From positions 1-36,009 of the forward strand of contig JAQYLJ010000011.1 in the NCBI GenBank assembly GCA_028720145.1: a stretch of 36,009 bases of DNA. Direction: 5' to 3'. Shown here in pieces: positions 3,378 through 13,595 of the stretch. The DNA comes from Clostridia bacterium. Lineage in GTDB: Bacteria; Bacillota; Clostridia; Oscillospirales; CAG-272. Every line of letters begins with the position of its first letter. Within the stretch, counting starts at the first letter, position 1. The notes below the pieces were generated by a model that had not been told where the DNA came from, did not search any database, and saw only the letters and a program-made list of their open reading frames with translations. A program made the position numbers and the translations under genes.

Positions 3378-3878
3378 TCAGTAATTGCTTATTTCCAGCT
3401 TTTTCCGAAGTTCCCTCGCTATTGCGTGATCACCAAGCTCGGCGTATGTGTGTGCCAGATTATTCAGCGCCAACAGTGTTTGCGGATGCTTTTCACCCAA
3501 TACTTCCAAACGAAGCGCATATACTTTTTCATACAATTCCCGTGCTTTTTCGAGATTGCCGAGTTCGCCGTATGTGTATGCCAGATTATGCAGCGCCAAC
3601 AGTGTATCCGGATTCTTTTCGCCCAAGACTTCCAAACGAAGCGCATACACTTTTTCCAGCAGTTCCAGTGCTTTTGTGTGATTGCCGAGTTCGCCGTATG
3701 TGTATGCCAGATTATTCAGCGCCAACAGTGTTTGCGGATGCTTTTCACCCAATACCTCACAACGAAGCGCATACACTTTTTCCTTCAGTTCCAGTGCTTT
3801 TTCGAGATTGCCGAGTTTGCCGTATGTGTGTGCCAGATTGCTTAGAGCCGTCAGTGTTTGCGGATGCTTCTCGCCCAG
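3378..3878 (-). repeat. Tandem 126-bp coding repeats (four TPR units)
   Basis: Units at 3878-3753, 3752-3627, 3626-3501 and 3500-3378 each encode 42 residues starting LGEK(H/N)P. At DNA level the segments are nearly identical: a stretch covering the GCGCCAACAGTGTTTGCGGA core recurs unchanged in the second and fourth units. This points to recent duplication or gene conversion. Confidence 0.9.
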
Positions 3879-5012
3879 AGTTTGTGTGTAATAGTCAGCG
3901 AGCCGCTGCGCCCATTTCAGCGCTTGGCTGTAATCAAGTTTTACGGTCGTGCCCTCGAAATACAAATCAAACAGTTTCTCCATCGCCTCCGGCAGTTCCC
4001 TTTCGGCGGCTGTGGTGAGCAGTTCCAGCGCATATTCTCGGTTTATCTCGACATCAATGCCTTCCAGATAAGCCAGTCCGATGAGATAATTGTGCTCCGG
4101 ATCGTTTTCGTTCGGCTTTAATGCAATATCCATGAGGGACCTACGCACGCCCGCGTCAAGTTCGGCTTCCCGATGCGCATCCACGCACGGAGGAATGTCC
4201 TCGAACTTCCGTCCCAACTCCTCGTGGTCGGTCTGCACCATCTCGACGGGCAATATATGCTTTTGTGACTGCCGTGCGGCAGGATATTCGACATCGCAAA
4301 CATAGTTATTCTCATTGACAAGATTCGGCGTCACAAGCAATGCGAACAGGTCGCTCTTTTCAAGCGCTTTCCCGATATTCTCGTTGAAATTTTCACCCGG
4401 CGTCAAAAATTCATCGTACCATATCGCCACATCTCGATACAGCGGATTCTTGTGTATGAGCCGCATCAACTCGTTGGCATGGTGGCGGTCTTTTTTGCGG
4501 TAACTGAGGAATATGTAAGCGTCGAACGCCTTGCGCACTCGTTCCGCCGTAGCATCATCGAAAAGCACCGAGGAAAGATACTTTTTCAGTTTTTCCTCAT
4601 AACTGATTGCGGTCATGTCATGACTATACGGGCTGAGATACTGACGCTCGCCGAATCTTTTCTTGTAGAATTCTTCTATCCCCGACTCCATCATGATCGG
4701 AAGCACGGCGGCGTGATGCTCGTCGGCATAGAGATAGTCCTCGTCCATTGCGCGGTTCGGCTCTGTCAGAAGACGGAATGTCACCGGCATGACGAACAGG
4801 TTCATTTGCCCGAGGTCGGCATCGCGGTAGGTTTCGGGGAGCGGTGCCGTCATATCCTCCGTATAATAGATCGCGCAGTCATGCGTTTTGAAGATGCTCT
4901 CGCATATCTCATCGAAATACCTCGCAAAGTCCTCCGGATGGCAGGTAAAATATACTCTCAGCTTCCCTTGGGGGGTGGCATTTCCCCTTGTCCTGACTTT
5001 CAAGTGTTCCAT
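3378..5012 (-). CDS. TIR-like / TIR / Sel1 / TPR multidomain protein (candidate immune effector)
   Basis: 544 residues. Residues about 18-130 form a divergent TIR-like region (KLRVYFTCHPEDFARYF). Residues about 164-260 are a clearer TIR domain: AYIFLSYRKKD start, WYDEFLTPGENF, and VEYPAA with Glu242 at the position of the NADase glutamate in catalytic TIRs. Residues about 305-375 are two Sel1-like repeats. Residues 379-544 are four 42-residue kinesin-light-chain-type TPR units. TIR proteins cleave NAD+ or signal in bacterial immunity; Sel1/TPR arrays bind protein partners. That this protein acts in defence is inference. The start has only a weak GAGA ribosome site. It lies 89 bp downstream of an SDR gene on the same strand with no clear terminator between, so co-transcription is possible. 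It is inserted beside a conserved SRP RNA locus, which suggests acquisition. Confidence 0.88.
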   Translation of the reverse strand: MEHLKVRTRGNATPQGKLRVYFTCHPEDFARYFDEICESIFKTHDCAIYYTEDMTAPLPETYRDADLGQMNLFVMPVTFRLLTEPNRAMDEDYLYADEHHAAVLPIMMESGIEEFYKKRFGERQYLSPYSHDMTAISYEEKLKKYLSSVLFDDATAERVRKAFDAYIFLSYRKKDRHHANELMRLIHKNPLYRDVAIWYDEFLTPGENFNENIGKALEKSDLFALLVTPNLVNENNYVCDVEYPAARQSQKHILPVEMVQTDHEELGRKFEDIPPCVDAHREAELDAGVRRSLMDIALKPNENDPEHNYLIGLAYLEGIDVEINREYALELLTTAAERELPEAMEKLFDLYFEGTTVKLDYSQALKWAQRLADYYTQTLGEKHPQTLTALSNLAHTYGKLGNLEKALELKEKVYALRCEVLGEKHPQTLLALNNLAYTYGELGNHTKALELLEKVYALRLEVLGEKNPDTLLALHNLAYTYGELGNLEKARELYEKVYALRLEVLGEKHPQTLLALNNLAHTYAELGDHAIARELRKKLEISNY

Positions 5013-10958: not shown

Positions 10959-10997
10959 CAGCAAACGGAATAACGAAAATACAAAGGATTTTTTCTT

Positions 10998-13541
10998 ATG
11001 GGACAGAAAAAGTGGAGAATCTTTATATCCTCTTCCCACGGAAGTGAAGAGGACACCCGCGCAAGGGATGCCCTTGCGCGGGATATGGATACACGGTGGG
11101 GGGTCGAGCCGGTCTTGTATTCCCGCCCCGACTTTTCCTCCGGGTACGGTGTTTCGATTCTGCAAAACTGTTATCATGCCCTCAACTCCTGTGATTTCGT
11201 CATTCTCATTCTAAATCACATTTACGGGAGCCCGGCGGAGAATACCGCTTATTCCTATACAGAGAACGAATATCGGTATGCCGTCGAACACGGAATCCCG
11301 GTACTGAAACTAGTGGGGCAAGAGGTCCTGCGTGATGCCATCGCTTACGGGAACCTCGTCTCGGACGACAAAAGAACCGCTTTTCTTGCCGAAAAAGCCG
11401 GGCGCTATGACGATCCTGCCCGCGTCTTTTCGTTCGTCCTGTCCATCAAAAACCAAGACAGAGACTCGACCATGTTTCCCTACCCGGACGAACGGCCGGA
11501 GGTCATCACGGACATTTCACGCACCCGTATTGCAGACTACGGATTGCATGTTTTCGGTGAACGGTTGCTCTCGGAGCAAATCACCCGATTGGAGAACCGT
11601 CTGGCGTCTGATATTTTCTCCCTCTCGGGGACACCCACTTTTCTCGATGCCCGCTATTCCGTGTATCCCGCAAACAATAAGGGAGAGTCCGCCCTCTCCG
11701 ACATAGTCGATCTTATGGCAGGCCGTGAGAGTCGTCGAATCCTCATCGCGGGAGAAGCGGGATGCGGAAAGAGTACGCTGCTACAAAATGCCTATCTGCG
11801 TGCCGCGCGGTCCTATCAAGGCGCATGGCGCAAGAGTTCTGTCCCCCTGCCCATCCCGGTCTATCTGTCTCTGACGGGGCGCGGCGGCACTTATGATTTC
11901 TCGGAAACCGGACTTGAAGACCTATGGCGCGAGGTTTTCCCGAATCGCGCATTCCCCGCATTTCTCTCGCTCGACAACCTGTCTTTCGACTACTATATCG
12001 ACGCATTGGACGAAGCGTGTGATGGGATCGCCGCCGAACAGGTGAAAACCGTCGTGGAAGGTCTTTTGAAAGCACCGAATGCCCACAGTATGCTTCTCTC
12101 CACGCGGAAACACCTCGTCAAAGACCTGGAACTCTATGGTCTCGTCGGCAGATTCTCCCATCGCTTTGAAATCTACGGATGGGATGACGAGAACATCCGA
12201 GACTATATCCGTCATCATACAGACCCCGACGATGCCGCGCGCATTCTCTTAGCGATTCACGGCATTCAGTCGCACAGAGGGGATAGCGGCTATTTTGCCC
12301 CGCTGCTCATTAAACTGGTACTTTGGAACATTCAACGGGAGGGTGTAGACGCTTTCTTTGACCGAACAAACGGCTGTGCCCGCTTCACGATCGGGCTCCT
12401 TCTGCGCTATACGGTCGAAGCTCTCTGCCGTCAGGAACTGAGTAAGAGAGGACTTCTCTCGGACGACGCCGTTCATGCACATCTGCAAGTGCTGTTCGAC
12501 TTCTGCTGGCGTCTGCACTGCGCATCGGACAAGCGCATCCGCGGAAAAGAATTACTGGAAGAGAGCGGGCGTGCGGCGGGTATCGCAGACCCTACCCCGT
12601 TCATCCGTCATTTCTACGACCTCTCCCGAGAGTTCCGCCCCACTTCCGTCCATCTGCAATTCGAGGAATACTTCCTCGCAGAAAAAGCACTGACGCTCTT
12701 GGGGTCTCGTGAAAGTGCGGGAGAACTCTATCATAATTCTTTCTTTCTGTCGTCCGAAGCAAACCGCATGATTGCGGATCTCATCAGCGTTGAGACCTCC
12801 GACAAAAAAGCCGCACTGCTTGATAATCTGTTCCGCCAATACCGCGCCAACAAAAACCACAGCCAACGAATCATGATTCTCTACCTCATGCCGCGTCTGG
12901 TCATGATGGAAAAGACCATCCTCCCTCGGCTGACCGCATTCATGAAGAAGGAACTTCATAAGCATCTGAAACACAAGAACCATCTGGAAGTCATCGTCAT
13001 CCTGAACTGCCTCACGCAACTCGAAGATTTCCGCGCCGAGCAGCTCTACTATCACCTCATCCGCGAGGATGCGGAGTTCAATTTGCTCAACCGCGGGGTC
13101 TACCTCATCTACCATCAGGATATCCACGCGGAGTTCGGGTATCGGGATACCGAAAACGCAGACTGGTTCCGCACGGCAGACCGCTTCCGAGAACACTACG
13201 GCAGTCCGGAAAAACGGCAAAAGTTTTTGCGCGCCGTGGATATGGAGATCATCCGCTCCTTCATCGAGAGCCGACAAAAAGTCCCCGAGGATATCCTCGC
13301 CGTCTATGGGAGCATCTCCGAAGAGGATCTGATGAATCAGACCCTCTATGCACCCATTCTCACAAAAACGGGTGTTCAAACCACCTATTTGCGCTATCTC
13401 TTGGACAGCGGACGGCTGACCCCTGAGGAAGCCGAGGTCTTCCACACCGATCTCGTCACTTCTTTCAAAGATCTGCAAAACGCCATTCGCGCCTGCTGTC
13501 AAAATCCACGGGAGACCGGGCAAGTCGTGTGCAACACCTGA
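10998..13541 (+). CDS. DUF4062-NACHT STAND NTPase (candidate antiphage sensor)
   Basis: 847 residues. N-terminus (about 6-106): DUF4062-type domain with IFISSSHGSEEDTRARDAL and SYTENEYRYAVEHGIPVLKL. Central NTPase: Walker A GEAGCGKST (252-260), Walker B DYYIDALDE (331-339) of the NACHT hhhDxxDE form, and LLSTR (366-370) as sensor arginine. A GYFAPLLIKLVLW segment (431-443) and VHLQFEEYFLA (551-561) match the conserved helical part and the sFxEYFxA motif of NACHT/NLR proteins. The rest (about 570-847) is helical with no recognised repeats and may be the ligand sensor. NACHT proteins in bacteria are antiphage switches and DUF4062 is a known N-terminal partner; that function here is inference. 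AAAGGA lies nine bases before the ATG. No companion gene adjoins. Confidence 0.88.
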   Translation: MGQKKWRIFISSSHGSEEDTRARDALARDMDTRWGVEPVLYSRPDFSSGYGVSILQNCYHALNSCDFVILILNHIYGSPAENTAYSYTENEYRYAVEHGIPVLKLVGQEVLRDAIAYGNLVSDDKRTAFLAEKAGRYDDPARVFSFVLSIKNQDRDSTMFPYPDERPEVITDISRTRIADYGLHVFGERLLSEQITRLENRLASDIFSLSGTPTFLDARYSVYPANNKGESALSDIVDLMAGRESRRILIAGEAGCGKSTLLQNAYLRAARSYQGAWRKSSVPLPIPVYLSLTGRGGTYDFSETGLEDLWREVFPNRAFPAFLSLDNLSFDYYIDALDEACDGIAAEQVKTVVEGLLKAPNAHSMLLSTRKHLVKDLELYGLVGRFSHRFEIYGWDDENIRDYIRHHTDPDDAARILLAIHGIQSHRGDSGYFAPLLIKLVLWNIQREGVDAFFDRTNGCARFTIGLLLRYTVEALCRQELSKRGLLSDDAVHAHLQVLFDFCWRLHCASDKRIRGKELLEESGRAAGIADPTPFIRHFYDLSREFRPTSVHLQFEEYFLAEKALTLLGSRESAGELYHNSFFLSSEANRMIADLISVETSDKKAALLDNLFRQYRANKNHSQRIMILYLMPRLVMMEKTILPRLTAFMKKELHKHLKHKNHLEVIVILNCLTQLEDFRAEQLYYHLIREDAEFNLLNRGVYLIYHQDIHAEFGYRDTENADWFRTADRFREHYGSPEKRQKFLRAVDMEIIRSFIESRQKVPEDILAVYGSISEEDLMNQTLYAPILTKTGVQTTYLRYLLDSGRLTPEEAEVFHTDLVTSFKDLQNAIRACCQNPRETGQVVCNT

Positions 13542-13565: not shown

Positions 13566-13595
13566 GAAAAAACTGCCGCGAGCGGCAGTTTTTTT
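13566..13595. terminator. Bidirectional terminator between the NACHT and U32 genes
   Basis: ACTGCCGC (13572-13579) pairs with GCGGCAGT (13582-13589) with A-runs before and seven T after, so it can stop both convergent transcripts. Confidence 0.9.

What the first reader, a model, noticed from the sequence alone, without database searches (positions are those of the whole stretch)
10998..13541. DUF4062-NACHT STAND protein with an unrecognised C-terminal sensor
Seen: GEAGCGKST, the DxxDE Walker B (DYYIDALDE) and the SFxEYFxA-like motif (LQFEEYFLA) identify a NACHT STAND ATPase; the N-terminus fits DUF4062, a TIR-like/effector-type domain found in bacterial immunity proteins. Established: bacterial NACHT and Avs proteins are antiphage sensors. 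Inference: this stand-alone 847-residue protein is a new or divergent immune receptor, with residues about 570-847 as the sensor. It is bracketed by unrelated housekeeping genes (ung and a U32 gene) and ends at a bidirectional terminator, consistent with single-gene insertion.
Basis: partly seen in the sequence, partly recalled or inferred. Interest (0 to 1): 0.75.

Follow-up and report, generated by a model that had tools for sequence, protein, structure and literature searches.

The report
Putative DUF4062-NACHT bacterial immune receptor
A bacterium carries one gene that joins a predicted NAD-destroying enzyme, an ATP-driven switch and an unnamed sensor, the same enzyme–switch order as in the human vault protein TEP1; it is probably a phage alarm that stops or kills the infected cell.

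Summary
In detail: window 10998-13541 encodes an 847-aa protein with DUF4062 (Pfam 3.7e-11) then NACHT (2.2e-6), both above curated cut-offs, then a C-terminus without a Pfam match. A 2026 preprint (PMC13174449) reports DUF4062 as a TIR-like NADase (bacterial Swarozyc, human TEP1). The catalytic Glu shown there (KpSwz E97, TEP1 E1008) aligns with E91 here; an Arg that aids TEP1 activity (R976) does not (Ile75). Six draws of whole genomes (1,521 searches, overlapping) held no full-length relative. One protein, of another order of the class, shares the P-loop region and C-terminal domain (score 84; 0 of 2000 shuffles reach it) but has a metallophosphoesterase instead of DUF4062. A metallophosphatase-NACHT protein, DS-8, is a validated E. 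coli antiphage protein. So the C-terminus is a module seen with two effectors. Most likely: a single-gene abortive-infection STAND receptor that depletes NAD+ on oligomerisation. No activity was tested. The 'single-gene insertion' reading is only partly borne out: three relatives have bacA in this slot. A TIR-TPR gene lies 6 kb away.

The parts
10998..13541 (+). DUF4062-NACHT-C-terminal domain protein, 847 aa (stop included)
   Evidence: ORF; codon usage; Pfam
10983..10988 (+). Shine-Dalgarno-like AAAGGA, 9 nt before the ATG
   Evidence: read
11016..11282 (+). DUF4062 TIR-like NADase-type effector domain, residues 7-95 (model domain about 1-150)
   Evidence: Pfam 3.7e-11; profile hits to KpSwz and TEP1; model pLDDT 72.8
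11268..11270 (+). codon of E91, predicted catalytic Glu (TENE91Y)
   Evidence: aligned with the KpSwz E97 and TEP1 E1008 positions; Glu in 23 of 23 other aligned rows, two of them doubtful
11733..12218 (+). NACHT NTPase, residues 246-407
   Evidence: Pfam 2.2e-6; own-genome search
11751..11777 (+). Walker A GEAGCGKST, residues 252-260
11988..12014 (+). Walker B with NACHT-type DALDE, residues 331-339
12651..12680 (+). HxxFEEYFLA motif, residues 552-561
   Evidence: meaning of the motif recalled
12708..13538 (+). C-terminal domain, putative sensor, residues 571-847; residues 603-760 shared with L083; helical by a low-confidence model only
   Evidence: phmmer domain E 6.6e-6 in a set of 34 ORFs and 0 of 2000 shuffles; no Pfam match; secondary structure
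13566..13595 (+). intrinsic terminator-like hairpin between this gene and the convergent U32 gene

Best explanation
A single-gene bacterial STAND immune receptor. At rest it is closed with ADP in the NACHT domain (inferred from STAND biology). The C-terminal domain binds a phage or infection-made trigger; the NACHT domain exchanges nucleotide and oligomerises; the N-terminal DUF4062 domains are brought together and hydrolyse NAD+ with E91 as the catalytic Glu, so the infected cell stops growing or dies before phage release. Shown here: domain order, intact Walker motifs, intact catalytic Glu, and a C-terminal module also found with another effector. Inferred: NADase activity, oligomerisation, the trigger, and antiphage function.
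For: DUF4062 and NACHT above Pfam cut-offs. A 16-row DUF4062 profile headed by this protein finds KpSwz (10wc, 2.7e-45) and human TEP1 (11gz, 2.9e-5) in the PDB. With the query alone, KpSwz is the only hit (E 0.066), and chain position 84, an Ala in the E97A construct, aligns with E91 (offset 13 is my arithmetic). In TEP1 the aligned Glu is chain position 115, i.e. residue 1008 with an offset of 893; with that offset the Arg named in the preprint (R908, R954, R976) also fall on Arg. Glu is kept in 23 of 23 other rows. DUF4062 as an antiphage NADase is experimental in PMC13174449 (abstract, first of two parts of Results, passages, Discussion, figure legends read). The P-loop region and C-terminal domain recur with a metallophosphoesterase effector; a metallophosphatase-NACHT protein, DS-8, is a validated defence protein that needs both domains (PMC13092281, passages read). 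No full-length relative besides the own gene in the draws.
Against: No activity, trigger or phage data. TEP1 R976, whose Ala mutant is less active, falls on Ile75 here; that position is Arg in most but not all of the other rows, so activity may be lower or lost. Purified human NWD1, NWD2 and NPHP3, also DUF4062-NACHT, showed no NADase activity in PMC13174449. No defence island: among six other window proteins scanned PADLOC found only weak TIR matches, in one. The whole-protein model was unusable (pLDDT 36), so the C-terminal fold is unknown. The DUF4062 model's Foldseek matches have TM-scores of about 0.4-0.5, and GTPases stand among the eight with E up to 0.001.
Confidence: 0.7

Rival explanations
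1. It is a STAND receptor whose DUF4062 makes a nucleotide signal or is an inactive assembly domain that recruits another effector, for example the TIR-TPR protein 6 kb upstream, rather than depleting NAD+ itself.
For: TIR-family enzymes can make signals (stated in PMC13174449, read); three of four human DUF4062-NACHT proteins tested there were inactive; Ile75 replaces the Arg that aids TEP1 activity; a second TIR gene is in the window.
Against: Catalytic Glu intact; no gene for a receptor of such a signal was recognised among the neighbours scanned, and the TIR-TPR gene is on the other strand with other genes between.
Confidence: 0.15
2. It is a STAND signalling protein of the cell's own physiology (stress or development), not phage defence.
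For: STAND proteins also serve in regulation (recalled); it lies directly behind ung on the same strand, among housekeeping genes.
Against: Apart from the own gene, no full-length relative in the 147 relatives or the 394 order genomes, whereas ung is found in 67 of 119 relatives. Effector exchange and patchiness are typical of immune genes.
Confidence: 0.12
3. The match of the C-terminal domain to the metallophosphoesterase protein is chance between two helical sequences, and the sensor is an orphan.
For: Only 21-23% identity over the alignments; the whole-genome E-value was 4e-4 in a scan of 391 genomes, so about 0.16 such hits are expected by chance; the stretch between NACHT and C-terminus is not significant (55 of 1000 shuffles reach it).
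Against: The hit lies at the same place behind a P-loop NTPase; SW score 84 against a shuffle mean of 34.5 (sd 5.6, maximum 75, 0 of 2000), reversed sequence 40; NTPase part 0 of 1000.
Confidence: 0.1

Closest known systems
Swarozyc (KpSwz), DUF4062 antiphage NADase (PMC13174449)
   Same: Same effector domain with catalytic Glu aligned.
   Different: KpSwz has a helical stalk and HTH/winged AUX domain that binds the portal, and no ATPase is described; here NACHT and a longer C-terminus follow.
Human TEP1, NWD1, NWD2, NPHP3
   Same: DUF4062 next to a NACHT ATPase; the TEP1 domain is hit by the same profile. Residues 33-36 read RWGV, as in TEP1 and in the bacterial rows L024, L036, L037, L038, and in none of the other rows aligned.
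   Different: Several of the human ones carry WD40 repeats (PMC13174449); none was found here. The remaining DUF4062 sequence scores closer to stand-alone DUF4062 proteins (142 to L005, 59 to L036), and it falls outside the 98/97 clade of L024 and L036-L038; its own place is unsure (82/56, long branch).
DS-8, metallophosphatase-NACHT antiphage protein of E. coli (PMC13092281, passages read)
   Same: Single protein, N-terminal enzyme plus NACHT; the relative L083 with the same C-terminal domain has a similar layout (Metallophos 3.8e-15; its NACHT score of 20.9 is under the cut-off).
   Different: Effector here is DUF4062.
bNACHT proteins (Kibby et al. 2023, paper not held; known from citations and PMC12169576 passages)
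   Same: Effector-NACHT-sensor layout in one bacterial protein.
   Different: Effectors and C-termini in the passages read are PD-(D/E)XK with NCH1, and SNaCT without a discernible effector. Clade placement was not tested.
Avs / AVAST
   Same: STAND antiphage logic.
   Different: No PADLOC Avs model matched.

Membership tests
NACHT STAND ATPase | NACHT profile over curated cut-off | tested here: met
   28.1 bits against 26.7
NACHT STAND ATPase | Walker A and Walker B with D(G/A)xDE | tested here: met
   252-260 and 331-339
NACHT STAND ATPase | ATP-dependent oligomerisation | not testable with these tools
   needs biochemistry
DUF4062 TIR-like NADase | DUF4062 profile over cut-off | tested here: met
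   43.5 bits against 24.7
DUF4062 TIR-like NADase | conserved catalytic Glu | tested here: met
   E91 aligned with KpSwz E97 and TEP1 E1008 positions; 23 of 23 other rows, two doubtful
DUF4062 TIR-like NADase | Arg of TEP1 R976, needed for full TEP1 activity | tested here: not met
   Ile75 at this place; not invariant in the family
DUF4062 TIR-like NADase | TIR-like fold | tested here: inconclusive
   pLDDT 72.8; eight Foldseek hits with E up to 0.001: two TIR, two CMP N-glycosidase, two of an E. faecalis conserved protein, BipA, IRGQ; SARM1, SEFIR and deoxyribosyltransferases follow at 0.001-0.005; TM about 0.4-0.5
DUF4062 TIR-like NADase | NAD+ hydrolysis | not testable with these tools
   needs biochemistry
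Swarozyc | DUF4062 followed by stalk and HTH/winged AUX domain, no ATPase | tested here: not met
   NACHT follows instead; whole protein did not find the KpSwz chain at E up to 1, the N-terminus matched it at 62-108 only
TEP1/NWD/NPHP3-type | DUF4062 then NACHT | tested here: met
TEP1/NWD/NPHP3-type | WD40 or TPR C-terminus | tested here: not met
   no Pfam match for residues 409-847 up to E 10; a repeat test was negative
bNACHT clades | NCH1 or SNaCT C-terminal domain | tested here: inconclusive
   no Pfam match; whether Pfam holds these models was not checked
DS-8 | metallophosphatase effector | tested here: not met
   no Metallophos match in this protein; present in L083
Avs | Avs profile | tested here: not met
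   PADLOC at E up to 1 gives only P-loop-region matches, mad8 and VakA

The most novel reading that the evidence does not exclude
The NTPase plus C-terminal domain defines an unnamed family of bacterial STAND receptors on which whole effectors are exchanged (DUF4062 NADase here, metallophosphoesterase in L083 and perhaps DS-8). Its DUF4062 mixes features of the stand-alone bacterial kind (overall similarity) and of the TEP1-like kind (RWGV), so it is either a bridge between the two or a separate fusion: a compact bacterial counterpart of the effector-switch pairing of human TEP1.
Probability: 0.35. Interest if true: 0.65.

Novelty: new variant of a known kind. Interest (0 to 1): 0.5.

Why it matters
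In the parts of the preprint that I read, the proven bacterial DUF4062 defence (Swarozyc) has no ATPase, while the four human DUF4062 proteins pair it with NACHT and three of the four were inactive when purified. A compact 847-aa bacterial protein with both parts and the catalytic Glu would let the NACHT-to-NADase switch be studied in one small protein, with a point-mutant control for each step. The C-terminus shared with a metallophosphoesterase receptor gives a testable claim: same kind of trigger, different weapon.

Tried and rejected
Whole-protein fold on a two-row alignment: pLDDT 36, discarded; its secondary structure string is the only basis for calling the C-terminus helical.

Hits rejected: L003 (surface protein, SLH-like by eye, matching 658-729); L012/L040 (large ORF matched at 73-123 only); L084 (P-loop match only); G898 (E 0.0099, not followed). 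With A2, 67 of 211 family genomes, own included, have a match at E up to 0.01; apart from the own gene the rows printed cover the P-loop columns, except one at 488-523 in a frame with stops. Metallophosphoesterase part in plasmids: 8 records; I opened 4 of them, their proteins are about 435-490 aa, too short for a fused NACHT, and 3 of the 4 lie beside a GASH gene. One search opened a plasmid DUF4062 protein.

Pattern scans of genome contigs and viral contigs gave no relative (one locus rejected). Phages: no match. Plasmids: two records, DUF4062 region only; none for the NTPase-C-terminal part of L083. E. coli genomes and metagenomes were not searched, so DS-8 could not be located.

Internal repeat test of the C-termini negative (138 of 500 and 489 of 500 shuffles reach the best score). 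The DUF4062 tree left the protein's place unsure. C-terminal profile against the PDB: two hits, E 0.63 and 1.6, taken as chance; L083's C-terminus: best 0.17, a designed helical-repeat protein. A search for the name Swarozyc returned 0 papers although the preprint uses it, perhaps through an accented letter.

Full report
What is there. Window 10998-13541 (+) encodes 847 residues. Pfam places DUF4062 at 7-95 (3.7e-11) and NACHT at 246-407 (2.2e-6), both over their cut-offs. NCBIfam and PADLOC give nothing beyond the P-loop region. Residues 409-847 and 570-847 match no Pfam family up to E = 10. The reading frame has the window's codon usage (0.259 bits per codon; 15 reference ORFs 0.193-0.610; other readings 0.010 or less). 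GC is 0.538 and GC3 0.632, a little under most of the 15 other genes compared. The window is a whole 36-kb contig of a genome of 1.9 Mb, 97.8% complete and 0.3% contaminated.

The effector. A preprint of May 2026 (PMC13174449; abstract, first of two parts of Results, passages, Discussion and legends read) reports that DUF4062 is a TIR-like NADase, in the antiphage protein KpSwz (catalytic E97, activated by a phage portal) and in human TEP1 (E1008). phmmer of residues 1-164 finds KpSwz as the only PDB hit (E 0.066), and the Ala of its E97A construct aligns with E91 here (offset worked out by me). A profile of 16 DUF4062 rows headed by this domain finds KpSwz at 2.7e-45 and TEP1 at 2.9e-5, with the same Glu column. 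For TEP1 the offset of 893 puts the Glu at 1008 and the three Arg named in the preprint on Arg. In an alignment with 23 other rows, two of them doubtful (L040, L029), all 23 keep Glu at position 91. Against activity: TEP1 R976 falls on Ile75. AlphaFold on the 16 rows gives pLDDT 72.8, residues 147-165 under 50. Of eight Foldseek hits with E up to 0.001, two are TIR domains and two CMP N-glycosidases, but two are GTPases (BipA, IRGQ) and two an E. faecalis protein; SARM1, SEFIR and deoxyribosyltransferases follow. The library there ends in April 2026; KpSwz and TEP1 are not in the rows shown.

The switch. Walker A (252-260), Walker B with DALDE (331-339) and HxxFEEYFLA (552-561) stand in STAND order (meaning of the last motif recalled).

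The C-terminal part. A search of residues 165-847 in 391 genomes of the class returned the own gene and one relative, G787, of another order. Its 924-aa protein (L083:3319-6093) carries a calcineurin-like metallophosphoesterase (3.8e-15), a P-loop NTPase region (NACHT 20.9 bits, below the cut-off of 26.7) and a C-terminus matching residues 603-760. Smith-Waterman of the C-termini is 84; 2000 shuffles: mean 34.5, sd 5.6, maximum 75; reversed 40. NTPase part 69, 0 of 1000 shuffles. The stretch between is not significant (35; 55 of 1000). So one receptor chassis is found with two effectors, on one example each. A metallophosphatase-NACHT protein, DS-8, defends E. coli and needs both domains (PMC13092281, passages); whether DS-8 shares this C-terminus could not be tested.

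Distribution. Full-length relatives: none in 147 relatives (4 of 147 matched: own, two DUF4062-only, one surface protein); none in 394 of the order (10 of 394 matched, own included); C-terminal profile in 338 of the phylum: own and one at E 0.0099; 40 of the G787 family: G787 only; 211 of the own family: own and P-loop-type matches. The draws overlap and are a small part of the species held. In 247 order genomes 19 have a DUF4062 match, 15 over the cut-off, own included. Three large proteins among them (L036, L037, L038; 1318-1505 aa) also carry a P-loop after DUF4062, so DUF4062-STAND proteins are not unique to this gene. Those three and L024 form a 98/97 clade; this protein sits next to it only weakly (82/56) on a long branch. 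It shares RWGV (33-36) with that clade and TEP1, and with none of the other rows aligned; by pairwise score it is nearer to stand-alone DUF4062 (142 to L005, 59 to L036). One origin or two of the fusion is thus open.

Locus. Ten same-genus loci around ung were fetched. The S1 gene is next to or near ung in eight of them. Three (L130, L131, L132) hold U32, and in all three bacA lies between ung and U32; the other seven show no U32 in the stretch held, and none of the ten holds this protein or the TIR-TPR gene at E up to 1e-6. A tblastn with the L131 bacA found no copy in the window. So the gene sits where relatives have bacA; replacement or rearrangement is as likely as a clean insertion. No direct repeats flank it. 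It starts 39 bp behind ung on the same strand and no promoter-like site was found between 10000 and its start, so read-through from ung is possible. The hairpin at 13566-13595 lies between the two convergent genes.

Verdict. Best reading: a DUF4062-NACHT abortive-infection receptor (0.70). It is a new variant of a known kind: known effector, known switch, unnamed sensor, and a combination known from human proteins and from larger bacterial ones. In the parts of PMC13174449 that I read, bacterial DUF4062-NACHT proteins are not described; its supplementary Figure S1 on co-occurring domains was not seen. Full-text searches for DUF4062 with NACHT gave 7 papers and for DUF4062 since 2020 gave 7; by title and start of abstract only this preprint concerns bacterial immunity.

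Noticed in passing
window 3378-5012 (-): 544-aa protein with a TIR domain (7.6e-12) and very similar TPR_12 repeats, GC 0.50; not found between dnaX and the SDR gene in L123 and L129, where the gap is about 0.5 kb against 2.3 kb here. Weak PADLOC matches to SAVED_TIR and ThsB.
   Followed up: partly
L075:3301-8337 (+), genome G017, same genus: 1678-aa protein TIR - NACHT - BspA-type leucine-rich repeats, laid out like a plant TIR-NLR.
   Followed up: no
L080:395-5764 (-), genome G104: 1789-aa TIR plus long BspA-type LRR protein; the NACHT-type match there is below cut-off.
   Followed up: no
L079:2304-5165 (+), genome G033, same genus: 953-aa TIR - NPHP3_N-type NTPase protein.
   Followed up: no
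L036:1552-5508 (-), L037:1900-6327 (-), L038:1279-5796 (-): Large DUF4062-ATPase proteins (1318, 1475, 1505 aa) with RWGV as in TEP1; possible bacterial counterparts of TEP1/NPHP3.
   Followed up: partly
residues 62-109 of the protein, window 11181-11324: Matches phage protein family phrog_15411 (4.7e-9), so DUF4062-like proteins may also occur in phages.
   Followed up: no
L131 3582-7732: About 4 kb of extra genes between the S1 gene and ung in G014, suggesting that the surroundings of ung change in this genus.
   Followed up: no
L089, L091, L092 (Agrobacterium plasmids): Stand-alone metallophosphoesterases beside genes annotated GTPase-associated system all-helical protein GASH; they match the effector of L083.
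   Followed up: no
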